Origin: Dyadobacter sp. MSC1_007
GTDB taxonomy: Bacteria > Bacteroidota > Bacteroidia > Cytophagales > Spirosomataceae
Assembly: GCF_023667495.1 (NCBI RefSeq)
Contig: NZ_JAMOZL010000007.1
Span: forward strand, 124,001 to 188,000
Direction of reading: 5' to 3'
DNA: 64,000 nucleotides
The notes under the pieces were generated by a model that had not been told where the DNA came from, searched no databases, and saw nothing but the letters and a program-made list of their open reading frames with translations. The stretch's first letter is position 1, and each line of letters opens with the position of its first letter. This document shows positions 36,159 through 49,643 of this stretch, one piece after another. Position numbers and translations under genes: made by a program.

Positions 36159-37661
36159 TTATTTCCTTTTAAATGCAGGAATATTTTTTCTCTCAATCAG
36201 GAAAACTACAAGCATAAATACCGCCAGCACCGCCATATGGACGGGGACCGACACCCAGAGATCGGGAATTTTAAATAACGTTGATCCATAAATGACGATG
36301 GCCCCCGCCCCAATATAACCCATGGCGGAAATGACGTCATAAGGCACCGGATAAAACTTCTGCCCGAAATAGTAGCAGAGCGATAGCATAATGAAGCCAG
36401 AAAGTGCAAATGCAATGGCAAAGCCCAGGTATCCGATCATCGGGACGAGCAAAAAGCTGGTTGCAATGGTGATCCCGGCCCCGGTAAGGGTCAACCAGGT
36501 ACCATAATGCGTTTTATCAGTAAGCTTGAACCACGTTGCCAGATTGTAATACACACCCAGGAAAAGATACCCGGCAAGCAGCCAGGGAACTACAACGAGC
36601 CCTTCGTGGTAAATTTTCTTCTTCAAAAACAGCTCCGCAAACAAGTCCAGGTTCAGGGATATTCCTACCCACATGAGCACACATATAATGATGAAATATT
36701 TGGTAACCTTGGCGAATACAGGCGGCGCATTCTTGTCTTCCCCTTTCGAAAAGAAAAATGGCTCTGCGGCGTATTTGAAGGCCTGAATAGCCAGGTTCAT
36801 GAAAATGGACAGCTTATAACACTGCACATAAATACCGATCGCGGCTTCGCGGGTCCTGCCGGGATAGAAATTTTCTGGCAACAAAAACTGGATAAATGCC
36901 CGGTCAAAAAGCATATTCAAGACGCCGCCGATATTCATCACCATAATAGGGAAGGCATACACCCACACCGGTTTGAAAAGCGTCCGGTCAAGGACAAACC
37001 GGAATTGCGCAAACTCCTTCCTGAGCATCCAGAAGAATAGCAGATTGGCAATGAGGTTCGCCATAACAATATAGTCCGGCGCATGGAGCGGGTTGTAGAA
37101 CGTGGCAATGAGCGGTTTCAGCTGAGTAAGATACTTGCCAGCATCGATATCACGGCAAACCAGCAGGAAAAACAGGTTCAAGGCAATATTGATCAGGATA
37201 TTGGTAACCCTGACGATCACGAATTTCTTCCCTTTTCCTTCCAGCCTGAGCTTGGCGAATGGTATCGAAACAATTCCGTCCGTAGCCATGATGATCGCAA
37301 ACATCCTGACAATGGACGTGCTATCCGGGTATTTGATCAGTGCAGCGGTTTGCTCTGCAAAAATGAATAGCAGTCCGGAAAAGAACAGACTAACGATGAT
37401 GACCGCGCTTAGTATGACATTGTAATATTGATCGCGGTCTTTCTCCTGTCGGGCGAAGCGGAAAAAAGCGGTCTCCATCCCGAAAGTATACAGCACGAGC
37501 GCGAGACCGGCATAGGCGAAAAGCTGGCCCTGTGCGGCGATCTGTTCGGGCTCGAAAAGTTTAGTGTGAAGTGCAACCAGCAGATAGTTCAGAAAGCGGC
37601 CCAGCATGGTGCTGATCCCGTATGTGGCGGTTTCACTAGCCAGTTTCTTAAGTACGCTCAT
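36159..37661 (-). CDS. Polysaccharide flippase (Wzx/MATE-like, MOP superfamily)
   Basis: A 500-aa protein with about 14 transmembrane helices, starting SVLKKLASETATYGISTMLGRFLNYLLVAL. These are the features of lipid-linked oligosaccharide flippases such as Wzx/RfbX (polysaccharide_synt domain). It would move undecaprenyl-linked glycans across the inner membrane. Genes gmd, GT4 and GT2 in the same region may supply its substrate, although they are not in one operon. It is convergent with mlaF, only 2 nt apart. Confidence 0.88.
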   Translation of the reverse strand: MSVLKKLASETATYGISTMLGRFLNYLLVALHTKLFEPEQIAAQGQLFAYAGLALVLYTFGMETAFFRFARQEKDRDQYYNVILSAVIIVSLFFSGLLFIFAEQTAALIKYPDSTSIVRMFAIIMATDGIVSIPFAKLRLEGKGKKFVIVRVTNILINIALNLFFLLVCRDIDAGKYLTQLKPLIATFYNPLHAPDYIVMANLIANLLFFWMLRKEFAQFRFVLDRTLFKPVWVYAFPIMVMNIGGVLNMLFDRAFIQFLLPENFYPGRTREAAIGIYVQCYKLSIFMNLAIQAFKYAAEPFFFSKGEDKNAPPVFAKVTKYFIIICVLMWVGISLNLDLFAELFLKKKIYHEGLVVVPWLLAGYLFLGVYYNLATWFKLTDKTHYGTWLTLTGAGITIATSFLLVPMIGYLGFAIAFALSGFIMLSLCYYFGQKFYPVPYDVISAMGYIGAGAIVIYGSTLFKIPDLWVSVPVHMAVLAVFMLVVFLIERKNIPAFKRK

Positions 37662-37718
37662 TAAATCTTGAATTGGAGACGCAAATATAGGCTATCCCGA
37701 CACGCGATGTGAAATAAA

Positions 37719-37747
37719 AAAGCCTTCCCCGCGAAAGGGAAGGCTTT
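37719..37747 (-). terminator. Terminator of the TetR gene
   Basis: AAAGCCTTCCC (37719-37729) pairs perfectly with GGGAAGGCTTT (37737-37747). On the minus strand it is followed by a T run, so it ends the TetR transcript before the flippase start. Confidence 0.8.
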
Positions 37748-37763
37748 GGTCTTGATTTATTTT

Positions 37764-38369
37764 TTAACCTCGCACGTCTGTGATAATATTTTCGATCACT
37801 TTCTCGATGCGGTTCCAGCCGTCGTCGGACTGCAGGTCTACATCCAGCATTTTTTCACGATAATCAGAGGAGATGGTCATAAAATAAATACCTGCGGAAA
37901 TGAATGCGATAAGCGCACTGGTGTCGTGATAATAGGGCAGGTCTCCTATTTTCGTCAGAATGCGATTGGCAACCTGGTTACGGGCATCCGAAAGCATTGA
38001 TTTCCCGGTGCCGATTTCCCAGCGGAGTAAGTCCCGTGTAGCCTTACGTTCGCGTAGGTCCTTGGTGAACGTGTGCATGAGGCTCATAAGTGCTTTGCTG
38101 CGTTCTTCAGGACTTAGCTGCGGGATGTTGTCAATGTAATCTGTGCTAAGGGTGGACGTGTATTCGCCGGATTTGACATACTGTTCCATTAGCCCGTCTA
38201 CACTCTCGAAGTACCTGTAAATGAGTACTTTGTTAACTCCCGCCGTTCTTGCGATCAGGTTTACACCAACCTTTTCTGTACCATGCTGTTCAATTACCTC
38301 GCCAACTGCCTTGAGTATTTTACTCTTGGTACGCTCGCGATCGCGCTTTTTAACTTTTTCAATTTTCAT
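37764..38369 (-). CDS. TetR/AcrR-family transcriptional regulator
   Basis: A 201-aa regulator. The N-terminal HTH is in ILKAVGEVIEQHGTEKVGVNLIARTAGVNKVLIYRYFESVDGLMEQYV, the standard TetR DNA-binding helix set. The C-terminal ligand-binding domain is unlike well-known members. The neighbours (flippase downstream, tRNA-Gln and fabD upstream) do not reveal a target. In the 248 bp up to the tRNA, ATAGTAAATG occurs twice (about 38390 and 38506), possible operator halves. Confidence 0.9.
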   Translation of the reverse strand: MKIEKVKKRDRERTKSKILKAVGEVIEQHGTEKVGVNLIARTAGVNKVLIYRYFESVDGLMEQYVKSGEYTSTLSTDYIDNIPQLSPEERSKALMSLMHTFTKDLRERKATRDLLRWEIGTGKSMLSDARNQVANRILTKIGDLPYYHDTSALIAFISAGIYFMTISSDYREKMLDVDLQSDDGWNRIEKVIENIITDVRG

Positions 38370-38582
38370 ATGGGTGCTGTTTAGGTTAAAACATAGTAAA
38401 TGTAATATTTCATCTCCAAATTTTATAGGAGAAAAATCTTCTAAGTAACCATTTTTTTGATTTTGTTTCCTTAGCCATGTTTTATGCCTTAAAATGGCCT
38501 AAAAAGATAGTAAATGGCAGGTTTTGCGTGGAATTTGGAGAAATTCTAATTTACGGGGAGACACAAAAAGAGAGGCACAAAA

Positions 38583-38609
38583 AAAGAGCTCACTTTTGAT
38601 GAGCTCTTT
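38583..38609 (-). terminator. tRNA-Gln terminator
   Basis: AAAGAGCTC (38583-38591) pairs perfectly with GAGCTCTTT (38601-38609); on the minus strand a T run follows. It sits just downstream of the tRNA. Confidence 0.8.
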
Positions 38610-38617
38610 GAATACTG

Positions 38618-38688
38618 TTGGCCGACAAGGACTCGAACCCTGAATAAGACAACCAAAATGTCCTGTGTTACCATTACACCATCGGCCA
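38618..38688 (-). tRNA. tRNA-Gln (anticodon TTG)
   Basis: A 71-nt cloverleaf on the minus strand. The 7-bp acceptor TGGCCGA/TCGGCCA is perfect; the anticodon stem GGACA/TGTCT holds the 7-nt loop TTTTGGT, giving anticodon TTG (CAA codons); the T arm is CAGGG-TTCGAGT-CCTTG. No CCA is encoded. A consensus promoter and a terminator flank it, so it is a single-gene transcript. Confidence 0.95.
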
Positions 38689-38706
38689 AAACCGTAAACA
38701 GTGGTG

Positions 38707-38737
38707 CAAAAGTAATGTGAGCAGGTTAAGTTGTCAA
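38707..38737 (-). promoter_or_regulatory. tRNA-Gln promoter
   Basis: On the minus strand TTG (plus 38735-38737), 20-nt spacer, TACTTTTG (plus 38707-38714): an exact TTG-N20-TAnnTTTG promoter, 18 nt from the tRNA 5' end. Confidence 0.8.
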
Positions 38738-38754
38738 GTTTTTTGGTAAAAAAA

Positions 38755-39633
38755 TTAAATACTTTTTAGCTCAACGGTGCTAGAGATCTTTTTTACAAGG
38801 CCTTGCAAAACTTTGCCCGGACCGGATTCGATGAAGATTTCTGCGCCGTCCGCTACCATTTGCTCGACGGATTGCGTCCAGCGCACCGGGGCGGTCAACT
38901 GAGAGATGAGATTTTCCTTGATAACTGAGACCTCGGTTGCAGGTTTTGCATTGACATTTTGATAAACCGCGCAGATAGGCGCCTGGAATTGCGCCGCGTG
39001 AATGGCCGAAGCGAGTTCTTCGCGAGCAGGCTCCATCAATGGCGAATGGAATGCTCCTCCAACCGGAAGTATCAATGCACGCTTCGCACCGGCCGCCTTC
39101 AATAGTTCACACGCCTTTTCTACTCCTTCGATCGTACCGGAGATTACAACCTGTCCGGGGCAGTTGTAGTTGGCTGGAACGACAATCTCGTCGGTAATGC
39201 CCGCACAAACCTCTTCAATCACCTGATCGGGAAGACCCAGAATGGCAGCCATCGTCGACGGACGGATCTCGCAGGCTTTCTGCATAGCGTCAGCACGTTT
39301 GGCAACCAGCGAAAGGCCGTCTTCAAAAGACAATGCGCCCGCAGCTACCAGGGCCGAAAATTCACCAAGGGAATGCCCGGCAACCATATTGGGGGCGAAA
39401 TCGGGGCTGATTTTTGCCAGGATAACCGAATGGATAAATATAGCGGGTTGCGTAACATTCGTTTGTTTGAGCTCTTCGTCAGAGCCTTCAAACATCACTT
39501 TGGTTATATCAAACCCTAGTATTTCGTTGGCTTTTTCAAATAGCGCTTTGGCGGAATCGGAGCTCTGGTAGAGGTCCAGCCCCATTCCTTTAAATTGCGA
39601 ACCCTGTCCTGGGAAAACATATGCCCTTTTCAT
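38755..39633 (-). CDS. fabD: Malonyl-CoA:ACP transacylase
   Basis: A 292-aa FabD. It opens MKRAYVFPGQGSQFKGMG; the nucleophile is Ser88 in GHSLGEFSALVA; the catalytic His is in GAFHSPLM near residue 200. It transfers malonyl groups to acyl carrier protein for fatty acid synthesis. The start at 39633 is where FabD homology begins; an in-frame upstream ATG (39669) adds 12 non-conserved residues. It stands alone here without other fab genes. Confidence 0.95.
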   Translation of the reverse strand: MKRAYVFPGQGSQFKGMGLDLYQSSDSAKALFEKANEILGFDITKVMFEGSDEELKQTNVTQPAIFIHSVILAKISPDFAPNMVAGHSLGEFSALVAAGALSFEDGLSLVAKRADAMQKACEIRPSTMAAILGLPDQVIEEVCAGITDEIVVPANYNCPGQVVISGTIEGVEKACELLKAAGAKRALILPVGGAFHSPLMEPAREELASAIHAAQFQAPICAVYQNVNAKPATEVSVIKENLISQLTAPVRWTQSVEQMVADGAEIFIESGPGKVLQGLVKKISSTVELKSI

Positions 39634-39664
39634 ATTGGATGATTTTAGGTTATTCCTGATTGAA

Positions 39665-39692
39665 AACAAAAAGCCCGGCGTAAAACCGGGCT
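39665..39692 (-). terminator. Terminator of the first T9SS cargo gene
   Basis: AGCCCGG (39672-39678) pairs with CCGGGCT (39686-39692); on the minus strand TTTTTGTTTTC follows. It separates the T9SS gene from fabD. Confidence 0.75.
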
Positions 39693-39759
39693 ACAAAGGA
39701 AATACTTCAATATGAAAGAAAAAAGGCCAGTAACTTTCCTGTGTTCCTGCGATTTTATT

Positions 39760-42675
39760 TTACCTGATGATCTGCACCCATCCTTTGATAGTAGTGGGCG
39801 AGCTTTGTTTTTTGAAAGACTCAAAGTAGACAGTAAGCTCGTAATAGTACTGTCCTGCTGCAAGCTCTTTTCCTCCGTTTGTCTTGCCGTCCCAGTTGAT
39901 ATTGACGTCTTTGGTAGAGAAAACCTGAGCTCCCCAGCGGTTGAAAGCCTTGAATTCGAGGGACTGCACAAAAGCGGGGCATTCATAAGGCTGGAAGACG
40001 TCGTTTTTGGCGTCGCCATTGGGTGTAAATACATTGGGCAGCACATACATAGGGCAGTTGTCCCTGCAAACGACATTGCTTGGCGCGCTTTCACTTCCAA
40101 ACCTGTTGACAGCCGTCACATAATAGCAGCCTGCAAAAGAAGTAAGTCCTTCATGGTCATAAGTGGTCGACAGCGGAGATGGGGGCGTGGTCACAGTCGC
40201 GATCAACACCGGGGTATCGCCTTCATACCTTGCATAATACACTTTGTAAGCCGAGATATTAGGATCGCAGTCTTTGCCTCCGACCTGGCCGGGATACTTC
40301 CATGAAAGGTGGTTGGTAAAACCTGTTGTGGTACAGAAAGCCTCCGGATGTGCCCTGAGCGAATCACAGTTGAGCGGGTCCAGGGCCAGCACCGGCGGGC
40401 ATGGCTTGGTGGTATCCGATGAGGATACGCAAAGGATCTGCGAGAAATTGTACAGGACAGCCGGTTTGATCTGGCTGTTATTATAGGAACCGACGGTCTC
40501 TACTTTATAGCAATAGGTCGAATCCTTGACAATGGTAACATTGACCGTCCCATCAGCTGCATAGCGGTCGGTACCATCGTCGACGAAGGTAAACGACTGG
40601 TCCCCTTGGACAGGCACATCGGCAATTCGGTTGAAAGTCCCGCGCTTGGCTTTGTCTTCGCGGTACACCCTGTGGATGCGGTTGGTATTGTCCCATGGCA
40701 CCAATGCGGTCCATTTAATGCCTACCTGGTTGGGCTGGGCAGCGGCCTGTTCGAGCCTGACACTGCTGGCCGTCTCGGTTTCATCGAGCTTGACGAGCTG
40801 TGAACCTTGCGTGTAATAGTATTCGAGCTTGTAATTGTAGGCATTGACCAATGTGTTCAGGTTCCTGTCTACAAAAATCGTGTCGGCAGCCCCTGGTGTG
40901 AGGTTAGTATTGATGGTGGAGATCAATGTAAAAGCACCGCCGTTCTGTCCTGTTGCCCTGTAAAGCCTGTACTGTGCAGGCAGCCCTGACGAAGCGGCCG
41001 GTTTGGTCCATTTAACGGTGATAACGCCTTTTGTTTCGCTGGTAGAATCGACGGTAACATTGGTGATGACCGGCATAAGCATGGGCAGGTTCAGGCAAAA
41101 CTCTGCCGAAGCAATGCTTTCGCCACCACCGACCAGGCTTCCAGCCTCATTAGGGGCCGTTCCCGGCCTTGGGAACATGACCACGATGCGGTAGCTGTAA
41201 GAAACGCCCGGGCGCAACCCATTGCCACTATTATTGTCCAGGAAAGTGGTTTCATTGACATTCACACGTCCGATCTCTTCATAGCCCGAGCCTGCGGGTA
41301 TACCTGTGATGCAGCCGACAGGAATATCGGTACATTTTTCAGCCCTGTAAATGGCGATCTTGGCCCCTGGCACCTGGCATTTGTAGGTGTCCCAGTTGAG
41401 GCGGTATGCAGTGCCTGCCGGGTCGGTGGTGGCCGTGGCTTTGAGCCCTGTGGCTTTCGGGCCGACGATTTTAATGCGCATCGTTGTAATATCGACAAGC
41501 TTTCGGAAGGTAGACGGGTTCACATTAGGCCCGGGCGCATCCTCGACTTTAAAGAGCACATCATAAGGTTCAAGCCGGATGTGGTTACAGGAAGTCTGCC
41601 ATGATAAAGTCCCTGTTACCTTGCTCTGTGCGCCCTGCTGTGCGACGGTGAACTTGGCCAGGGCAGGCGAGATCAGCGTGCCGTCATAAACACCGCCCGA
41701 AGATGTGAGATTTAGTTTATCGCCGTTTTTGTCAGTGGCAGTAATTGTCTCGTTGATGAGCGAACCGGCTTCGATACAGATATCGGGCAATGGCTGCATG
41801 AGCGGCCTGTCGTTTTTAGAGTCCTCGACGATGATCTGCATGTCCCGGACGATCTGTCCGATCAGAAAGCCGTCCCGCCATTCCTCGACGACGAATGCGA
41901 CATTGTAATAGCCTTTGGTAACCGGCGCATCCCATATCAGGTCACCATTAAGCCTGTTCATGCTGAAAGTAGCCGGTGATGCACCTGCTTCTGTCTGGCC
42001 GGGGGCGCCTATCTGGTTGGGATTTACATATTGCAGGTTAATACCGGACCCTTTTACACCGCTTCTTTGTGGTACAAACAGGCGGTAGGCCAAACTATCG
42101 CCGTCCGCATCAAATGCACCTGGGTTATGGATGTATCTCTGGCCAACTGCGGCTACATCAATCGGGGCATTCAGAAGTACCGGGGTCTGGTTCATTCCGA
42201 AGTTTGAATTGATCTCGAGAATCGTGCTTACGTAGAAATTGAGGTTCTGGGTAGGCGGCGGACCGATGTTCAGGACGTTGTTGTTCCGGTTGTCCTCCTC
42301 AAAGGAAATACGGTACTGGCCTGCCGAGGGAAATGTATAACTGATGATATAAGTGTTCTGTGTGGTATTGTTCCCGATATTCGGAATAGGCGTAAGACGA
42401 GGCGCTTCCAGCACTACCGGATTGGTATTGTCGTTGAGTTTAACCGGGCCAATCGTAAAAAATACACTGTTCTGTGCATTAGCAGCACCTTCTCCGTTCT
42501 GCATGTCGAAATAGGCGGTCAGCTTTATTTCGTAGGTATGGCGTGGAGAGTTTGCCGGACTTGTCCTCCTGGCTGTGATTTCCCCTGCCCGAATGTGCGT
42601 GGCAAATGCCTGGTTTAGAGTAAGTAACAGGAATAGAGGTATAAGTAATAATGAGAATTGTAAAACCGAGCGCAT
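39760..42675 (-). CDS. Giant secreted protein with T9SS type B / gliding-motility C-terminal domain (copy 1)
   Basis: A 971-aa protein with a signal peptide (MRSVLQFSLLLIPLFLLLTLNQAFA). N-terminal domain begins THIRAGEITARR, a motif seen in many Bacteroidota T9SS cargo proteins; an FDADGDSLAYRL segment suggests a calcium-binding/cadherin-like fold. Several fibronectin-III-like modules occupy the middle (around 420-850). The last 90 residues, LPNVFTPNGDAKNDVFQPYECP ... FNRWGAQVFST ... NINWDGKTNGGKELAAGQYYYELTVYF, are the CHU_C/type B sorting domain. It is probably displayed on the cell surface. Function unknown. From residue about 243 onward it is nearly identical to copy 2. Confidence 0.9.
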   Translation of the reverse strand: MRSVLQFSLLLIPLFLLLTLNQAFATHIRAGEITARRTSPANSPRHTYEIKLTAYFDMQNGEGAANAQNSVFFTIGPVKLNDNTNPVVLEAPRLTPIPNIGNNTTQNTYIISYTFPSAGQYRISFEEDNRNNNVLNIGPPPTQNLNFYVSTILEINSNFGMNQTPVLLNAPIDVAAVGQRYIHNPGAFDADGDSLAYRLFVPQRSGVKGSGINLQYVNPNQIGAPGQTEAGASPATFSMNRLNGDLIWDAPVTKGYYNVAFVVEEWRDGFLIGQIVRDMQIIVEDSKNDRPLMQPLPDICIEAGSLINETITATDKNGDKLNLTSSGGVYDGTLISPALAKFTVAQQGAQSKVTGTLSWQTSCNHIRLEPYDVLFKVEDAPGPNVNPSTFRKLVDITTMRIKIVGPKATGLKATATTDPAGTAYRLNWDTYKCQVPGAKIAIYRAEKCTDIPVGCITGIPAGSGYEEIGRVNVNETTFLDNNSGNGLRPGVSYSYRIVVMFPRPGTAPNEAGSLVGGGESIASAEFCLNLPMLMPVITNVTVDSTSETKGVITVKWTKPAASSGLPAQYRLYRATGQNGGAFTLISTINTNLTPGAADTIFVDRNLNTLVNAYNYKLEYYYTQGSQLVKLDETETASSVRLEQAAAQPNQVGIKWTALVPWDNTNRIHRVYREDKAKRGTFNRIADVPVQGDQSFTFVDDGTDRYAADGTVNVTIVKDSTYCYKVETVGSYNNSQIKPAVLYNFSQILCVSSSDTTKPCPPVLALDPLNCDSLRAHPEAFCTTTGFTNHLSWKYPGQVGGKDCDPNISAYKVYYARYEGDTPVLIATVTTPPSPLSTTYDHEGLTSFAGCYYVTAVNRFGSESAPSNVVCRDNCPMYVLPNVFTPNGDAKNDVFQPYECPAFVQSLEFKAFNRWGAQVFSTKDVNINWDGKTNGGKELAAGQYYYELTVYFESFKKQSSPTTIKGWVQIIR
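39773..41946. repeat. 2174-bp near-identical block, copy A (within T9SS gene 1)
   Basis: This matches 42914-45087 in the same orientation and at exactly the same length, with no insertions or deletions. Differences are scattered single bases (a few percent by eye, not calculated), mostly silent; only about seven amino acids differ over about 724 codons. Both edges fall inside the coding sequences, and identity breaks off abruptly outside. Confidence 0.92.
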
Positions 42676-42850
42676 ATATGAGACGAAACTAGGATCAGGA
42701 GATGTTTTTACTAATCGGCAATTGATTATTTAACGAAAAATGTTTGAAACGAGTATTTAAACGCAGGCTAATGAAAAGCTCTTCGTAAACATAATAAAAC
42801 AATTTCAATTGTCTATTTCCATCGTTTCAGGCTCACCACATAGCATAACA

Positions 42851-42872
42851 CTCCCGCGGTTCCGTCGCGGGA
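42851..42872 (-). other. GC hairpin after T9SS gene 2
   Basis: CTCCCGCG (42851-42858) pairs with CGCGGGAG (42865-42872) with a 6-nt loop, about 30 nt after the stop. No T run follows on either strand, so a terminator call is weak; it may stabilise the mRNA 3' end. Confidence 0.4.
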
Positions 42873-42900
42873 GGAGCGTTTAAGGTAAGGTACGTAGTAT

Positions 42901-45789
42901 TTATCTAAGTAGTTGCACCCATCCTTTGATAGTAGTGGGCGAGCTTTGTTTTTTGAAAGACTCAAAGTAGACAGTAAGCTCGTAATAGTACTGTCCTGCT
43001 GCAAGCTCTTTGCCGCCATTTGTTTTACCGTCCCAGTTGATATTGACGTCTTTGGTGGAGAAAACCTGAGCGCCCCAGCGATTGAAAGCCTTGAATTCGA
43101 GCGACTGCACAAAAGCGGGGCATTCATAAGGCTGGAAGGTGTCGTTTTTGGTGTCGCCATTGGGTGTAAACACATTGGGCAGCACATACATGGGGCAGTT
43201 ATCCCTGCAAACGACATTGCTAGGCGCGCTTTCACTTCCGAACCTGTTGACAGCCGTTACATAATAGCAGCCTGCAAAAGAAGTAAGGCCTTCATGGTCA
43301 TAGGTGGTCGATAGCGGAGATGGGGGCGTGGTCACAGTCGCGATCAGGACAGGGGTGTCGCCTTCATACCTTGCATAATATACTTTGTAAGCCGAGATAT
43401 TAGGATCGCAGTCTTTGCCTCCCACCTGGTCGGGGTACTTCCATGAAAGGTGGTTGGTAAAACCTGTTGTGGTACAGAAAGCCTCCGGATGTGCCCTGAG
43501 TGAATCACAGTTGAGCGGGTCCAGGGCCAGCACCGGCGGGCATGGCTTGGTGGTATCCGAAGAGGATACACAAAGGATCTGCGAGAAGTTGTACAGGACA
43601 GCCGGTTTGATCTGGCTGTTATTATAGGAGCCGACAGTCTCTACCTTATAACAATAAGTGGAATCCTTGACAATGGTGACATTGACCGTCCCATCGGCGG
43701 CATAGCGGTCGGTACCATCGTCGACGAAGGTAAACGACTGGGCCCCTTGGACAGGCACATCGGCAATGCGGTTGAAAGTCCCGCGCTTGGCTTTGTCTTC
43801 GCGGTACACTCGGTGGATGCGGTTGGTATTGTCCCATGGCACCAATGCGGTCCATTTAATGCCTACCTGGTTGGGCTGGGCAGCGGCCTGTTCGAGCCTT
43901 ACACTGCTGGCTGTCTCGGTTTCATCGAGCTTGACGAGCTGGGAGCCTTGGGTGTAATAGTATTCGAGCTTGTAATTGTAGGCATTGACCAATGTGTTCA
44001 GGTTCCTGTCTACAAAGATGGTGTCGGCAGCCCCTGGTGTGAGGTTGGTATTGATGGTGGAGATCAATGTAAAAGCACCGCCGTTCTGTCCTGTTGCCCT
44101 GTAAAGCCTGTACTGTGCAGGCAGCCCTGAGGAAGCGGCCGGCTTGGTCCATTTAATAGTGATAACCCCTTTTGTCTCGCTGGTAGAATCGACGGTAACA
44201 TTGGTGATGACCGGCATAAGCATGGGCAGGTTCAGGCAAAACTCGGCCGAAGCAATGCTTTCGCCGCCACCGACCAGGCTACCAGCCTCATTAGGGGCCG
44301 TTCCCGGTCTTGGGAACATGACCACAATGCGGTAGCTGTAAGAAACGCCCGGGCGTAACCCATTGCCACTATTATTGTCCAGGAAAGTGGTTTCATTGAC
44401 ATTCACGCGGCCGATCTCTTCATAGCCGGAGCCTGCGGGTATGCCTGTGATGCAGCCGACAGGTATATCGGTACATTTTTCAGCCCTGTAAATGGCGATC
44501 TTGGCACCCGGCACCTGGCATTTGTAGGTGTCCCAGTTGAGGCGGTATGCAGTGCCTGCCGGGTCGGTGGTGGCCGTGGCTTTGAGTCCTGTGGCTTTCG
44601 GGCCTACGATTTTAATGCGCATCGTTGTAATATCGACAAGCTTCCGGAAGGTGGACGGGTTCACATTGGGCCCGGGCGCATCCTCGACTTTGAAGAGCAC
44701 ATCATAAGGTTCAAGCCTGATGTGGTTACAGGAAGTCTGCCATGAGAAAACGCCTGTTACCTTGCTCTGTGCGCCCTGCTGGGCGACGGTGAACTTGGCC
44801 AGGGCGGGAGAAATCAGCGTGCCATCATAAACACCACCCGAAGAGGTGAGATTGAGCTTATCCCCGTTTTTGTCAGTGGCAGTAATTGTCTCGTTGATGA
44901 GCGAACCGGCTTCGATACAGATATCGGGCAATGGCTGCATGAGCGGCCTGTCGTTTTTAGAGTCCTCGACGATGATCTGCATGTCCCGGACGATCTGTCC
45001 GATCAGAAAGCCGTCCCGCCACTCCTCGACGACGAATGCGACATTGTAATAGCCTTTGGTAACCGGCGCATCCCATATCAGGTCACCGGTGCGCCTGTCC
45101 ATCGTGAAAGTAGCAGGCGATGCACCCGCTTCGGTTTGCCCGGGGATAGTTACCAGGTTCGGATGTTTGTATTGAAGGTTGACCCCTCCACCCTTAGCGG
45201 TGGCTTGCTGCGGTACAAACAGGCGGTAGGCCAAACTGTCGCCGTCTGCATCGAATGCGCCCGGATTGTGGATATACCGCTGGCCGACTGACGCAAGATC
45301 GATGGGAGAATTCAATAACACAGGGGAATGGTTCCACCCGAATGCAGCATTGATCTCGATCGTAGAGGCGACGTAAAAGTTAAGGTCCTGTGTGGGTGGC
45401 GGGCCGAGGTTCAGGATGTTATTATTGCGCCTGTCTTCCTCGAACGAGATCCTGTATACCCCCGCCGCGCGGAAGGTATGAATGACGGTATAGACGTTTC
45501 TGGTCGTGCCATTGCCGACATCGTCACGATCAACTCTTTGAACGTCCGCAATGTAATCCGTCCCGGCGTAGAAATTCACCTTTTCCTGCCTGATAGAGGC
45601 TTCCGGGCCGTTTATTTCGTCGAAATAGGCGGTGAGGGTGATCTCGTATGTGAAGCCGCTTGGGTAGCCAGGATGTCTCCTCGCGGTGATCTCGCCAGCA
45701 CGGATATGCGTCGCGCTGGCCTGGTATGCGGATAAAAAAAGCAATAAGAAACCTATTGCCCTGAACAGAGAGGATAGAGGATTTTGCAT
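42901..45789 (-). CDS. Giant secreted protein with T9SS type B / gliding-motility C-terminal domain (copy 2)
   Basis: A 962-aa paralog of the preceding protein with the same layout: signal peptide (MQNPLSSLFRAIGFLLLFLSAYQASA), THIRAGEITARR, a YIHNPGAFDADGDSLAYRL segment, fibronectin-like modules and a C-terminal type B sorting domain (LPNVFTPNGDTKNDTFQP ... WVQLLR). Residues 1 to about 234 show only about 60% similarity by eye to copy 1; the rest differs by about seven residues. The two are in tandem, 225 bp apart, and could be expressed separately: copy 2 has a 12-bp inverted repeat in its leader that copy 1 lacks. Function unknown. Confidence 0.9.
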   Translation of the reverse strand: MQNPLSSLFRAIGFLLLFLSAYQASATHIRAGEITARRHPGYPSGFTYEITLTAYFDEINGPEASIRQEKVNFYAGTDYIADVQRVDRDDVGNGTTRNVYTVIHTFRAAGVYRISFEEDRRNNNILNLGPPPTQDLNFYVASTIEINAAFGWNHSPVLLNSPIDLASVGQRYIHNPGAFDADGDSLAYRLFVPQQATAKGGGVNLQYKHPNLVTIPGQTEAGASPATFTMDRRTGDLIWDAPVTKGYYNVAFVVEEWRDGFLIGQIVRDMQIIVEDSKNDRPLMQPLPDICIEAGSLINETITATDKNGDKLNLTSSGGVYDGTLISPALAKFTVAQQGAQSKVTGVFSWQTSCNHIRLEPYDVLFKVEDAPGPNVNPSTFRKLVDITTMRIKIVGPKATGLKATATTDPAGTAYRLNWDTYKCQVPGAKIAIYRAEKCTDIPVGCITGIPAGSGYEEIGRVNVNETTFLDNNSGNGLRPGVSYSYRIVVMFPRPGTAPNEAGSLVGGGESIASAEFCLNLPMLMPVITNVTVDSTSETKGVITIKWTKPAASSGLPAQYRLYRATGQNGGAFTLISTINTNLTPGAADTIFVDRNLNTLVNAYNYKLEYYYTQGSQLVKLDETETASSVRLEQAAAQPNQVGIKWTALVPWDNTNRIHRVYREDKAKRGTFNRIADVPVQGAQSFTFVDDGTDRYAADGTVNVTIVKDSTYCYKVETVGSYNNSQIKPAVLYNFSQILCVSSSDTTKPCPPVLALDPLNCDSLRAHPEAFCTTTGFTNHLSWKYPDQVGGKDCDPNISAYKVYYARYEGDTPVLIATVTTPPSPLSTTYDHEGLTSFAGCYYVTAVNRFGSESAPSNVVCRDNCPMYVLPNVFTPNGDTKNDTFQPYECPAFVQSLEFKAFNRWGAQVFSTKDVNINWDGKTNGGKELAAGQYYYELTVYFESFKKQSSPTTIKGWVQLLR
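42914..45087. repeat. 2174-bp near-identical block, copy B (within T9SS gene 2)
   Basis: Direct-repeat partner of 39773-41946. The 3141-bp offset means homologous recombination between the copies would fuse the two genes into one chimera and delete about 3.1 kb. Confidence 0.92.
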
Positions 45790-45792
45790 AGA

Positions 45793-45835
45793 AGTAATTC
45801 GTTGATCGCCGCAATTATGTAAACAACGAATTACT
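45793..45835 (-). promoter_or_regulatory. 12-bp inverted repeat in the leader of T9SS gene 2
   Basis: AGTAATTCGTTG (45793-45804) and CAACGAATTACT (45824-45835) are perfectly complementary, separated by 19 nt. The proximal arm is 3 nt from the start codon. It could be a regulator site or an mRNA hairpin that masks translation initiation. Confidence 0.5.
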
Positions 45836-45992
45836 AATTAAAAACTGTGTGTAAAATGGTTACATAAGTGACGTTTTGCTGATGCGGAGTAATTGGGTTC
45901 TAGCGGGTTGGCGATCCAGATGCTAATCAGTCTAAATAATTCTTAATAATGATTATAAATAGAAGTTGTGTTTTGCAAAAATGGAAGGATTT

Positions 45993-46024
45993 TTTGCCTC
46001 GCATACGTTTGTGATATACCTTTG
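45993..46024 (+). promoter_or_regulatory. sdhCAB promoter
   Basis: TTTG (45993-45996), 20-nt spacer, TACCTTTG (46017-46024): an exact Bacteroidota sigma-A promoter, giving a leader of about 45 nt before sdhC. Confidence 0.8.
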
Positions 46025-46076
46025 AAAGGTTCTAAATATACCTAATTTTTTTGCACTACAACCATTCGTTTCCATT

Positions 46077-46748
46077 ATGTCGTGGTTTTCACAAACGTTA
46101 ACGAGCTCTATCGGTAAAAAACTTCTGATGGCTCTTACCGGACTATTTCTAATAAGCTTTCTGGTGATCCATGCCACCATCAATGCCATGATTTTTTACA
46201 ATGACGGCGGCGAGACATTTACCCACTGGGGGCATTTTATGGGTACCAACCCAATTGTACGTACGCTTGAAATCGGCCTTATAATAGGCTTTCTGATCCA
46301 TATCATCGATGGTCTGCTACTTTGGAAAAACAATCGTGATGCACGCCCGGTAAGATATGCGGTGAACAATGCGGCAGCCAACAGTACCTGGTATTCGAGG
46401 AGCATGGGTTTGCTGGGAACACTCCTGCTGATCTTTCTGGTGATCCACACTTCACATTTTTGGATTCCAAACAGGACCAACCAGTTTGCAACAGGCGAAG
46501 AGCTGAATCTTTATCAGATGATGCTCGATATATTTCAGAATCCTGTTATAGTGATCATCTACATTCTCGGTTGCGTTTCCCTCTTCTGGCATTTGCTTCA
46601 CGGGTTCAAAAGCGCATTTCAATCGCTGGGATTGAACCACGTCAAATACAACGGCATCATTTCATTCATCGGGACTGCATTCTCCATCGTCGTGCCGATC
46701 CTCTTCGCGCTGATGCCGCTTTCAATCTATCTTGGGTGGGTGAAGTAA
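46077..46748 (+). CDS. sdhC: Succinate dehydrogenase cytochrome b subunit
   Basis: A 223-aa membrane protein with five hydrophobic helices, as in the single-subunit b558 anchor of type B succinate dehydrogenases. Helix 1 region SSIGKKLLMALTGLFLISFLVIHATINAMIFY and later HTSHFW and HLLHGFKSAFQSLG contain the histidines expected to ligate two hemes. It anchors SdhAB and carries electrons to menaquinone. First gene of sdhCAB, with the promoter at 45993. Confidence 0.93.
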   Translation: MSWFSQTLTSSIGKKLLMALTGLFLISFLVIHATINAMIFYNDGGETFTHWGHFMGTNPIVRTLEIGLIIGFLIHIIDGLLLWKNNRDARPVRYAVNNAAANSTWYSRSMGLLGTLLLIFLVIHTSHFWIPNRTNQFATGEELNLYQMMLDIFQNPVIVIIYILGCVSLFWHLLHGFKSAFQSLGLNHVKYNGIISFIGTAFSIVVPILFALMPLSIYLGWVK

Positions 46749-46796
46749 TTCCGCAAAATTTCTTTTTTAATTTTTCGATTAAATAAAATCTGATAT

Positions 46797-48785
46797 ATGG
46801 CAACTTCATCTCGTCTGGATGCCAAAATACCACAAGGATCTCTGGAAAGTAAATGGAGCAAATACCGCTCTTCGGTTCCTCTTGTTAACCCTGCCAACAA
46901 ACGTAATCTTGAAATTATTGTAGTTGGGACCGGACTCGCAGGTGCATCGGCTGCTGCCACGCTTGCGGAGCTGGGTTACTCAGTTAAAGCCTTCTGTTTT
47001 CAGGACTCCCCACGCCGTGCGCACTCGATCGCAGCACAAGGGGGAATCAATGCTGCTAAAAATTACCAAAACGACGGTGACTCGGTTTACCGTCTTTTTT
47101 ATGATACCATTAAAGGAGGTGACTATCGTGCAAGAGAGGCCAATGTGCACCGTCTTGCAGAAGTTTCCGGCAATATTATCGACCAATGCGTAGCGGCTGG
47201 TGTGCCTTTCGCGCGTGAGTACGGCGGTTTGCTGTCCAACCGTTCATTCGGTGGAACACAAGTGCAGCGTACGTTCTACGCGGCGGGACAAACAGGTCAG
47301 CAGCTTCTGCTAGGTGCATATTCAGGTTTGCAGCGCCAGGTGGGAATGGGTACAGTGAAAATGTACAACCGCCACGAAATGCTTGATATTGTGAATATTG
47401 ATGGCAAATGCCGCGGTATCATCGCCAGGAACCTCATCACCGGAGAACTTGAAAGACACGGCGGACACGCAGTATTGCTTTGCACAGGAGGTTACGGAAA
47501 CGTTTTCTACCTCTCAACCAATGCAATGGGAAGCAATGTTACCGCAGCATGGAAAGCGCACAAACGCGGTGCATTCTTTGGTAACCCTTGCTTTACACAG
47601 ATTCACCCGACCTGTATCCCTGTATCGGGCGAGCACCAGTCGAAACTGACGCTGATGTCAGAATCACTTCGGAACGACGGACGTATCTGGGTTCCGAAAG
47701 CGAAAAACGACACCCGTCCAGGTAATGAGATCCCTGAAAACGAACGCGATTACTACCTCGAACGCCGTTACCCTGCATTTGGTAACCTTGTTCCCCGTGA
47801 TATTGCGTCGCGTGCGGCCAAGGAACGTTGCGATGCCGGATATGGTGTTGGTTCCTCAAAATTGGCCGTTTACCTGGATTTCGCAGCAGCGGTAGAGCGT
47901 TACGGTCGAGGCGAAGCCAGCAAGAACAATATTCACAATGCATCCGATGCCGACATTACTGCCTGGGGAAAAGCTGTCGTGAAAGAAAAATATGGCAACC
48001 TCTTTGATATGTATAAGCAAATCACGGGAGAAGACCCTTACGAGGTGCCAATGCGTATTTATCCAGCGGTACACTATACCATGGGCGGACTTTGGGTCGA
48101 TTACAACCTGATGACCACCGTTCCAGGCTTATATGCATTGGGAGAAGCCAACTTCTCAGATCATGGAGCAAACAGGCTGGGAGCATCTGCATTGATGCAG
48201 GGCCTCGCCGACGGTTATTTCGTGATCCCTTACACAATCGGGGCTTATCTGGCGAGTGAAATTCGGACCGGAAAGATCTCGACGGACCACGAGGCGTTTG
48301 TGAAAACAGAGCAGGAGGTAAGAGAAAGAATCGAGAAACTAATCAGCATCCAGGGTAAAACTTCCCCTGAACTTTTCCACCGTCGTTTGGGCAAGATCAT
48401 GTGGGATAAGTGCGGTATGGCCCGGAATGAGCAGGGTTTGAAAGAGGCGATCGTTGAAATCCGTGCACTGAGAAAGGAATTCTGGTCGGATGTGAAGGTA
48501 ATGGGAACAGCTAGCTATTTCAATCCGGAGCTGGATAAAGCGAATCGCGTTGCCGACTTCATCGAACTCGGTGAGCTTATGTGCCTCGACGCATTGACGC
48601 GCGAGGAATCATGCGGCGGCCACTTCCGCGAAGAACATCAGACTGAGGAAGGCGAAGCATTGCGTGACGATGAAAACTTCATGTTTGTTTCGGCCTGGGA
48701 AAATAAAGGCACGGAAGAATGGGAGCTTCACAAAGAAGACCTGATTTACGAAAACATTAAGATTGCCCAGAGAAGCTACAAATAA
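46797..48785 (+). CDS. sdhA: Succinate dehydrogenase flavoprotein subunit
   Basis: A 662-aa flavoprotein. FAD dinucleotide motif [20 protein letters not shown] near residue 42; covalent FAD His in [18 protein letters not shown] near 78; substrate site [20 protein letters not shown] near 272; GGLWVDYN and [25 protein letters not shown] complete the active site. It oxidises succinate to fumarate (or reverse) on the cytoplasmic face. Follows sdhC by 48 nt. Confidence 0.97.
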
Positions 48786-48878
48786 CACGGCGGATCATCC
48801 TGCGGTTTATTTTGTGCGCTTACGACAGTGAATTTTTAGTTTATAGAAAAAGTAATATCAGTAATAAAGGATATAGGT

Positions 48879-49643
48879 ATGGAAGGAAATATGAGTTTGT
48901 CGCTGAAAGTATGGAGACAAAGTAATAAAGATACAGCAGGAGGGTTTGAGAACTATAAATTGGATCACGTGTCTCCTGACATGTCGTTTCTTGAAATGTT
49001 CGATGTATTGAATGAGCAGCTCATCGAAGAAGGGAAAGAGCCTGTTTCATTTGATCACGATTGCCGCGAAGGCATTTGCGGTGCGTGCTCGATGTACATC
49101 AACGGTCGCCCGCATGGACCGCTCAGAGGAGTAACCACTTGTCAGCTGCACATGCGATCGTTCAACGACGGCGATACTATCGTGGTAGAACCATGGAGAG
49201 CAGCGGCATTCCCGGTGATCAAGGACCTTGTTGTTGATCGTGATGCATTCGACCGTGTGATTTCTGCGGGAGGTTTTGTTTCCGTTAATACCGGTAATGC
49301 CCAGGATGCAAACAGCCTGCCTATTCCAAAAGTGGCTGCGGACGATGCATTTGCTGCGGCAGCCTGCATCGGATGCGGGGCCTGTGTGGCAGCTTGTAAA
49401 AATGCTTCGGCGATGTTGTTTGTTTCTGCCAAGATTTCCCAGCTGGCGCTATTGCCGCAAGGACAAGCGGAACGCAGCATTCGTGCGGAGAAAATGGTCG
49501 CTCAAATGGATGCAGAAGGTTTCGGAGCCTGCACTAACACTGGTGCCTGCTCGGCTGAATGCCCCAAAGAAATCAGTCTCGAAAATATAGCCCGCATGAA
49601 CCGAGAATACATCGGCGCGAAATTCTCTTCGTCGGCTGTTTAG
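48879..49643 (+). CDS. sdhB: Succinate dehydrogenase iron-sulfur subunit
   Basis: A 254-aa Fe-S protein that links SdhA to the heme subunit. The [2Fe-2S] site is [15 protein letters not shown] with Cys in TTCQLHM; the [4Fe-4S]/[3Fe-4S] sites are [11 protein letters not shown] and [15 protein letters not shown]. Length and cysteine spacing are standard for the type B enzyme. The start may be 48879 or the ATG at 48891 (MSLSLKVW). Follows sdhA by 93 nt; terminator downstream. Confidence 0.96.

What the first reader, a model, noticed from the sequence alone, without database searches (positions are those of the whole stretch)
39773..45087. Two adjacent giant T9SS genes share an exactly equal 2174-bp near-identical block
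Seen directly: 39773-41946 and 42914-45087 align without any indel, differ by scattered mostly silent bases, and encode about 724 codons with only about seven amino-acid changes. The N-terminal 240 residues are only about 60% alike and the intergenic DNA is unrelated. The edges are sharp and lie inside codons. This fits gene conversion or selection that keeps the fibronectin/sorting part constant while the N-terminal head diversifies. Functionally, one scaffold is presented with two different heads. Homologous recombination would fuse the genes and remove 3.1 kb.
Basis: seen in the sequence. Interest (0 to 1): 0.7.

Follow-up and report, generated by a model that had tools for sequence, protein, structure and literature searches.

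The report
Twin secreted proteins sharing copied bodies
Two neighbouring genes for secreted proteins keep overwriting each other's body sequence by gene conversion while keeping two different front ends, and related bacterial genera show the same pattern; the process is known elsewhere, but this protein family and the breadth of the pattern look new.

Summary
In detail: 39773-41946 and 42914-45087 align without indels, with 95 mismatches and 7 amino-acid changes in 724 codons; the heads are 61% identical. Both genes encode T9SS type B (CHU_C) cargo in a Dyadobacter genome.

Partners are sisters in the body tree in 23 of 27 pairs, in the head tree in 1 of 27. Tract edges differ between species and some tracts are internal patches: recurrent gene conversion.

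"The head diversifies" is not supported: in the 22 usable between-species comparisons head dN/dS is at most 0.16. Heads are preserved types, though types have turned over.

Of 21 pairs fetched from seven other genera, some with copies 0.2-3 Mb apart, 10 have homogenised bodies and unlike heads. Over all 48 pairs, 28 have homogenised bodies and none a homogenised head. A loop of about 21 codons also stays unconverted inside converted DNA in five pairs. Closest precedent: 3'-limited concerted evolution of H. pylori babA/babB and homA/homB.

The parts
39760..42675 (-). Downstream copy ('D'), 971-aa T9SS type B cargo protein
   Evidence: ORF; CHU_C 5e-18, TIGR04131 7.5e-14; matches in 143 of 150 family genomes at E<=1e-60
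42901..45789 (-). Upstream copy ('U'), 962-aa paralogue
   Evidence: ORF; CHU_C 4e-18, TIGR04131 2.7e-14
39773..41946 (-). Homogenised block in D (codon 244 to about 4 codons before the stop)
   Evidence: 95 mismatches, 0 indels in 2174 bp
42914..45087 (-). Homogenised block in U
42196..42600 (-). D head: N-terminal beta-sandwich domain (about residues 26-160), not converted
   Evidence: 89/110 codons differ from U at residues 26-148; predicted structure
45337..45711 (-). U head (about residues 27-151), not converted
   Evidence: limits transferred from D by alignment
42022..42087 (-). D loop, about residues 197-218, in the second, cadherin-like domain; an unconverted island in some relatives. 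In this genome it lies outside the block
   Evidence: domain
45163..45228 (-). U loop equivalent to the D loop
   Evidence: limits transferred by alignment
39769..40041 (-). D CHU_C type B sorting domain
   Evidence: residues 879-969
42910..43182 (-). U CHU_C type B sorting domain
   Evidence: residues 870-960
42676..42900 (.). 225-bp spacer with the D upstream region
38755..39669 (-). Conserved right neighbour: acyltransferase domain gene, fabD-like (the name fabD is recalled)
   Evidence: PF00698 3e-43; flank family F12 at 46 of 55 loci clustered
46077..49643 (+). Conserved left neighbours sdhC-sdhA-sdhB
   Evidence: sdhC and sdhA flank families F11 and F14 at 47 and 46 of 55 loci clustered

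Best explanation
U and D are paralogous T9SS cargo proteins: a variable N-terminal beta-sandwich domain, a cadherin-like domain, several further beta-sandwich domains and a C-terminal type B sorting domain. Homologous recombination repeatedly copies the body of one gene onto the other within a genome (gene conversion; RecA dependence is inferred). Tracts mostly stop short of the first 160-300 codons, because head DNA is too diverged to pair and probably because cells that lose one head are selected against. The result is two stable head types on a body and sorting module that evolve as one sequence. The same process acts on paralogue pairs in related genera, including copies far apart. Shown: homogenisation, its recurrence, its variable edges, purifying selection on heads. 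Inferred: RecA, and display of two binding or assembly specificities on one secreted scaffold.
For: Body sister pairs 23 of 27 against 1 of 27 for heads. The nearest row is the own-genome partner for 7, 17, 29, 40, 45, 45, 47, 43 of 54 copies in eight consecutive segments from head to tail. Minimum U/D label changes are 8 on the head tree and 26 on the body tree. Body dS within the G000 pair is 0.197, against 1.19-1.33 to G022. Breaks at species-specific alignment columns (231 in G004 to 774 in G018), with internal patches such as G038 429-561 at 97% between 70% and 88%. The longest run of identical codons is not reached in any of 500 shuffles in 15 of 27 pairs. Same locus beside sdh and fabD-like genes in the genus. 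In genus g5 (G163, G139, G178; copies 1.3-3 Mb apart) heads follow locus and flanking genes while bodies follow genome; in g17 the same holds for G103.
Against: Four pairs (G009, G018, G029, G041) are not sisters in the body tree; G009, G011, G029 and G041 bodies are only 76-82% identical. Over all 27 pairs the U heads are not one clade (AU p 1e-95), so head types have been replaced or re-duplicated, as in G021. In other genera the locus-versus-genome contrast is not shown for every pair: heads of G123, G073, G094 and G107 also group by genome, heads of G051 and G180 are unresolved, the G084 bodies are unresolved, and 7 of 8 g17 pairs plus G064 are not homogenised. In G107 the conversion runs through the loop and into the head. 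In G000 the mismatches are evenly spread (153 of 500 shuffles reach its longest run), so one old event is enough there. No function was measured.
Confidence: 0.9

Rival explanations
1. Independent recent tandem duplication in each species, followed by fast divergence of the head only.
For: G021 looks like this: both copies have D-like upstream DNA, the same DNA after the stop codons, and sister heads. In G123, G073, G094 and G107 of other genera the heads group by genome too.
Against: For 10 genomes chosen after seeing the head tree, U heads form one clade (support 100) while U bodies as one clade are rejected, AU p 6e-102. Heads of the same type are 97-100% alike between species in G019/G035 and G001/G005, so they predate those splits. 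Where bodies are nearly identical, heads still carry many synonymous differences (for example G094 28 in 88 codons), which one duplication date cannot give.
Confidence: 0.05
2. Purifying selection alone keeps the body constant; no DNA exchange.
For: The body is under purifying selection between species (median dN/dS 0.053 and 0.043).
Against: Synonymous sites are homogenised: body dS is 0 to 0.02 in G004, G010, G015, G021, G030, G033 and G039, while bodies of the related species pairs compared differ by dS 0.3 or more.
Confidence: 0.01
3. Unequal crossing-over with copy-number cycling (three copies, then back to two) rather than conversion.
For: 10 of 48 genus genomes carry one copy; G032 and G046 have U upstream DNA and head with a D-like 3' flank, the expected deletion product.
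Against: Internal tracts with both edges inside the gene (G038) and homogenised copies 3 Mb apart (G163) cannot arise this way; no three-copy locus was seen among the 48 in the listed matches.
Confidence: 0.08
4. Head swapping: a recently duplicated gene receives a foreign head by horizontal transfer.
For: Head types have turned over (at least 8 label changes on the head tree).
Against: In most Dyadobacter subclades, in g5 and in g17, heads stay with locus and flanking genes, which places head identity before body homogenisation.
Confidence: 0.06

Closest known systems
Helicobacter pylori babA/babB and homA/homB outer-membrane protein genes (PMC3960876 passages; PMC2795765 passages)
   Same: Paralogue pairs whose 3' segment clusters by strain (concerted evolution by gene conversion) while the 5' segment clusters by gene.
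   Different: Those are strains of one species, with regulation of adhesion by conversion described for bab and sab genes. Here it is between species and genera, in T9SS type B cargo of Bacteroidota; switching is not shown.
Salmonella tufA/tufB gene conversion (PMC5485169 passages)
   Same: Distant copies (762 kb apart there) converting; [quoted passage not shown]
   Different: Two nearly identical whole genes there; here part of each gene is kept different.
Long-lasting concerted evolution of 26 prokaryotic genes (PMC6053082, abstract and two passages)
   Same: Recurrent conversion in separate lineages; one case, fla, is a tandem pair.
   Different: Described as mostly key members of important pathways; its main text has no occurrence of Bacteroidetes, Cytophaga or secretion.

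Membership tests
T9SS type B (CHU_C) cargo proteins | C-terminal CHU_C / Bac_Flav_CTERM domain above the curated cut-off | tested here: met
   65.3 and 65.7 bits vs 27; 51.6 and 53.0 vs 35
T9SS type B (CHU_C) cargo proteins | N-terminal Sec signal peptide and export by T9SS | not testable with these tools
   A helix is predicted at residues 3-19; no export assay or signal-peptide program was run
Domain-limited concerted evolution of bacterial paralogues (bab/hom type) | One segment groups by genome | tested here: met
   23 of 27 pairs
Domain-limited concerted evolution of bacterial paralogues (bab/hom type) | Another segment of the same genes groups by gene or locus | tested here: met
   1 of 27 pairs sister in the head tree; met within subclades, as U heads are not one clade over all 27
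Domain-limited concerted evolution of bacterial paralogues (bab/hom type) | Intragenomic recombination shown in the laboratory | not testable with these tools
   Inferred from tract structure only
Cassette-type antigenic variation | A repertoire of donor heads in the genome feeding an expressed locus | tested here: not met
   Own genome (30 contigs, E<=0.001): besides the pair, the only matches covering the head region are two of 31-37% identity; heads are under purifying selection between species
Cadherin-like domain (residues 160-286) | Structural match to cadherin repeats | tested here: inconclusive
   VIA Z about 6, rmsd 2.4-2.9 over 93-101 residues in rows 2-11; the top row is a two-domain V-type protein, Z 7.1, rmsd 5.2. 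Z under 8 may mean only a common arrangement

The most novel reading that the evidence does not exclude
Separate paralogue pairs in several genera settle on the same mosaic: the first domain and a loop of about 21 codons in the second domain (residues 197-218) stay different while everything around them is homogenised. The two elements would form one specificity surface, and conversion is filtered by selection for two distinct specificities on a shared secreted scaffold, so conversion maps mark the functional site.
Probability: 0.3. Interest if true: 0.7.

Novelty: new member of a known kind. Interest (0 to 1): 0.5.

Why it matters
It is a natural experiment on how far gene conversion reaches: one gene family, 48 pairs examined in eight genera, adjacent and distant copies, with tract edges readable codon by codon. 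It shows that bacteria can keep a large secreted scaffold nearly identical in two genes while preserving two different front ends, and it points to residues that may have to stay different. It also warns that draft assemblies break at this locus: in 8 of 48 genus assemblies a contig ends inside the gene body.

Tried and rejected
Positive selection on heads: not found; dN/dS at most 0.157 in 7 U and 15 D comparisons with dS under 1.5 in head and body (the comparisons share species and are not independent). U-versus-D head dS is saturated (1.06 or more in 27 of 27 pairs, infinite in 13), so selection right after duplication cannot be tested.

Selection as the only reason for the unconverted loop: not established. 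In G084 and G073 the block before the loop (residues 164-197) is converted while the stretch after it is not (2/33 against 34/63, and 3/33 against 38/63 differing codons), so short conserved patches convert on their own and similarity-gated pairing may explain the island.

Solved relatives by sequence: none convincing; best E 0.024, to a FlgD stretch. Foldseek with the whole model gives generic Ig/FN3 strings, TM-score of the query 0.10-0.18 in the 50 rows shown. Head model: best Foldseek E 2e-4, TM-score 0.25. A Pfam scan of 58 N-terminal parts gave only weak hits, the commonest PKD in 20 of 58 members, best E 0.0042. Rfam: only the tRNA at gathering thresholds in 37600-46800.

Literature: judged by their listings, gave no report of conversion between T9SS cargo paralogues of Cytophagales in this open-access library. 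One search found one P. gingivalis paper (passages read) on domain rearrangement and allelic exchange; one search found one paper on T9SS components (PMC7323717, listing only). Subscription papers are not covered.

Rows left out or counted apart: the frameshifted D copies of G006 and G043, the fragmented G028 gene and the contig-broken pieces were not in the trees. The intact U copies of G006, G040 and G043 were in the 67-row trees but are not among the 27 pairs. Pairs in other genera were picked because two hits of one genome stood in the list, which was cut; that sample of 21 is not exhaustive. In one search the two tests of U as one clade ran; the tests of single pairs that were to follow did not (script error). 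The head tree used the careful method, the body tree and the trees the quick one.
Full report
OBSERVATION. The two blocks are real. At a constant offset of 3141 bp, 39773-41946 and 42914-45087 align over 2174 bp without indels and with 95 mismatches; 84 of the mismatches are at third codon positions and 7 of 724 codons change the amino acid. The proteins are 971 aa (39760-42675, downstream copy, here D) and 962 aa (42901-45789, upstream copy, here U), both on the minus strand. Both end in a T9SS type B sorting domain (CHU_C, TIGR04131). Before the block the proteins are 61% identical. Change-point segmentation gives DNA identity 49% (alignment columns 2-118), 70% (119-262), 95% (263-1003).

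LOCUS AND ORGANISM. The window lies in G000, 7.45 Mb in 30 contigs. The pair sits between sdhCAB and an acyltransferase (PF00698, fabD-like) gene, with a tRNA-Gln beyond. Flanking families for sdhC, sdhA and the acyltransferase were found at 47, 46 and 46 of the 55 loci clustered, contig-end pieces included. The protein is widespread: 143 of 150 genomes of the family sample match at E<=1e-60.

SPECIES COMPARISON. All 48 genus genomes searched have a match. By my sorting: 27 have two intact adjacent copies (including G000), 2 have a pair with a frameshifted downstream copy (G006, G043), 8 have a contig end inside the gene (G003, G007, G012, G017, G023, G024, G040, G042), 1 has a fragmented gene (G028), and 10 have one copy (G002, G013, G016, G025, G026, G032, G034, G045, G046, G047). 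DNA identity in windows of 40 codons is mostly 45-75% over the first 160 columns, while the body ranges from about 60-85% in unconverted pairs to 100%. Body dS within the pair is 0 to 0.02 in seven genomes (G004, G010, G015, G021, G030, G033, G039) and 0.197 in G000, while the G000 bodies differ from those of G022 by dS 1.19-1.33.

TREES. In the head tree (residues 25-170, 67 rows, careful method) one pair of 27 is a sister pair, G021. In the body tree (codons 520-960, DNA, quick method) 23 of 27 are; the exceptions are G009, G018, G029 and G041. Going from head to tail in eight segments, the nearest row of a copy is its own-genome partner in 7, 17, 29, 40, 45, 45, 47 and 43 of 54 cases. For ten genomes, chosen after seeing the head tree, U heads are one clade (support 100) and U bodies as one clade are rejected (AU p 6e-102). 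Over all 27 pairs, U as one clade is rejected for bodies (p 5e-5) and also for heads (p 1e-95), with at least 26 and 8 label changes respectively: heads follow position within subclades, but head types have been replaced or re-duplicated several times. G021 looks like a re-duplication: both copies have D-like upstream DNA and the same DNA after the stop codon.

TRACTS. Breaks lie at different columns in different species (for example 231 in G004, 421 in G010, 543 in G001, 774 in G018), and G038 has an internal patch (429-561, 97%) between 70% and 88%. In 15 of 27 pairs the longest run of identical codons after column 300 is not reached in any of 500 shuffles; in G000 it is reached in 153, so its mismatches are evenly spread as after one older event. 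Such internal patches are the mark of gene conversion rather than of duplication or simple selection. Four pairs (G009, G011, G029, G041) have bodies only 76-82% identical and look unconverted for a long time.

HEADS. Between related species each head type is conserved. With dS under 1.5 in head and body, median head dN/dS is 0.094 for U (7 comparisons, maximum 0.157) and 0.037 for D (15 comparisons, maximum 0.085), against 0.053 and 0.043 for bodies. U heads are more varied between species than D heads (median identity 52% against 71%). So the pair keeps two preserved heads; on this evidence it is not a diversification engine.

OTHER GENERA. I fetched 21 further pairs from seven other genera of the family, chosen because two hits of one genome were listed. 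By the measure (at most 20% differing codons in residues 480-960), 10 of the 21 have homogenised bodies: G051, G180, G049, G107, G073, G103, G163, G123, G084 and G094. They include adjacent pairs (G051, G180, G049) and distant ones: G163 (2.9 and 6.0 Mb of one contig), G123 (3.2 and 4.3 Mb), G094 (3.4 and 3.6 Mb) and G084 (0.04 and 5.75 Mb of a 6.3-Mb contig, nearer if it is circular). The contrast of head by locus and body by genome is shown in g5, where flanks and heads pair G163a with G139b and G178b, and G163b with G139a and G178a, while bodies group by genome, and in g17 for G103, while the other seven g17 pairs keep two distinct bodies. In g3 the heads of G049 and G084 match by type; the G049 bodies are sisters (support 84) and the G084 bodies unresolved. 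Against this, in G123, G073, G094 and G107 the heads group by genome too, and the heads of G051 and G180 are unresolved; there separate duplications are not excluded, although a nearly identical body beside a head with many synonymous differences still needs conversion or a head from elsewhere. Neighbours sdhA/sdhC were found at 5 of the 40 loci of other genera, so most of these pairs lie elsewhere in the genome or the neighbours lie beyond the stretch fetched. Over all 48 pairs, 28 have at most 20% differing codons in residues 480-960; 27 of these 28 have at least 40% differing codons in the head (exception G107, 27%), and none of the 48 has a head with 20% or less.

THE LOOP. A stretch of about 21 codons (residues 197-218) in the second domain can stay different inside converted DNA: G015 1/33, 17/21, 0/63 differing codons before, in and after the loop; G051 0/33, 13/24, 3/61; G094 1/33, 12/25, 1/63. 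With a cut-off of 10% for both flanks three pairs qualify (G015, G051, G094), with 16% five (also G004, G180); one pair, G107, has the loop converted too. The cut-offs were set after seeing the data. The loop differs at synonymous as well as amino-acid-changing codons (G015 6 and 11, G051 7 and 6, G094 3 and 9), so it was not simply changed after a conversion that covered it. Whether selection or poor pairing spares it is open, because in G084 and G073 the short block before the loop converted while the stretch after it did not.

STRUCTURE. AlphaFold2 on D (58-row alignment) gives mean pLDDT 85, pTM 0.57: a string of beta-sandwich domains; Foldseek returns generic Ig/FN3 receptors. The first 290 residues alone (pLDDT 90, pTM 0.85) show two domains, the second resembling cadherin repeats at Z about 6, which is not diagnostic.

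MECHANISM. Shown: body sequence is homogenised between paralogues in a genome, repeatedly and separately in many lineages, and also between distant copies; heads are mostly left out and are conserved. Inferred: RecA-dependent conversion limited by sequence divergence, plus selection against loss of a head; two specificities on one secreted scaffold. Single-copy genomes G032 and G046 carry U-like upstream DNA and a U-type head with a D-like 3' flank (the 3' flank judged by eye), as expected from deletion by recombination between the bodies, but G032 matches a MAG record (435394 bp) and collapse by the assembler cannot be excluded for either. Six other singles have D-like upstream DNA (G002, G013, G025, G026, G034, G045); G016 and G047 had no upstream match.

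WHAT IS KNOWN. The pattern is that of H. pylori babA/babB and homA/homB, where 3' segments cluster by strain and 5' segments by gene (PMC3960876 and PMC2795765, passages). Distant conversion, blocked by large differences, is known for tuf (PMC5485169, passages). A survey lists 26 prokaryotic genes with long-lasting concerted evolution (PMC6053082, abstract and passages). I found no report for T9SS cargo in the listings. I therefore file it as a new member of a known kind, with unusual breadth.

Noticed in passing
window 42676-42900 and 45790-46076; same place in relatives: DNA upstream of U and D genes in the genomes printed carries a similar element, roughly CACACATTTTT, a short gap, then ATTTTTCGTTGA, although the regions are otherwise unlike; it is weaker before the window's D gene (seen by eye).
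   Followed up: no
downstream of D, window about 39670-39759, and in relatives: A stretch like CTTTTTTCTTTC ... AAGTATTTCCTTTGTAGCCCGG followed by a hairpin and T run lies between the D stop codon and the acyltransferase gene in most genomes printed (seen by eye); no Rfam match.
   Followed up: partly
L058 (G043) and L063 (G006): The downstream copy is split into two frames while the upstream copy is intact; pseudogene or sequencing error cannot be told apart.
   Followed up: no
L186 (genus g28, G107): The most extreme pair: conversion reaches into the head (1 of 21 codons differs at residues 126-148), with copies about 1.2 kb apart.
   Followed up: partly
G000:C13:231389-232159 and G000:C16:155407-156288: Distant relatives of the head region (31-37% identity) in open frames of other lengths; the C16 frame of 736 aa also matches the sorting end of the query.
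   Followed up: no
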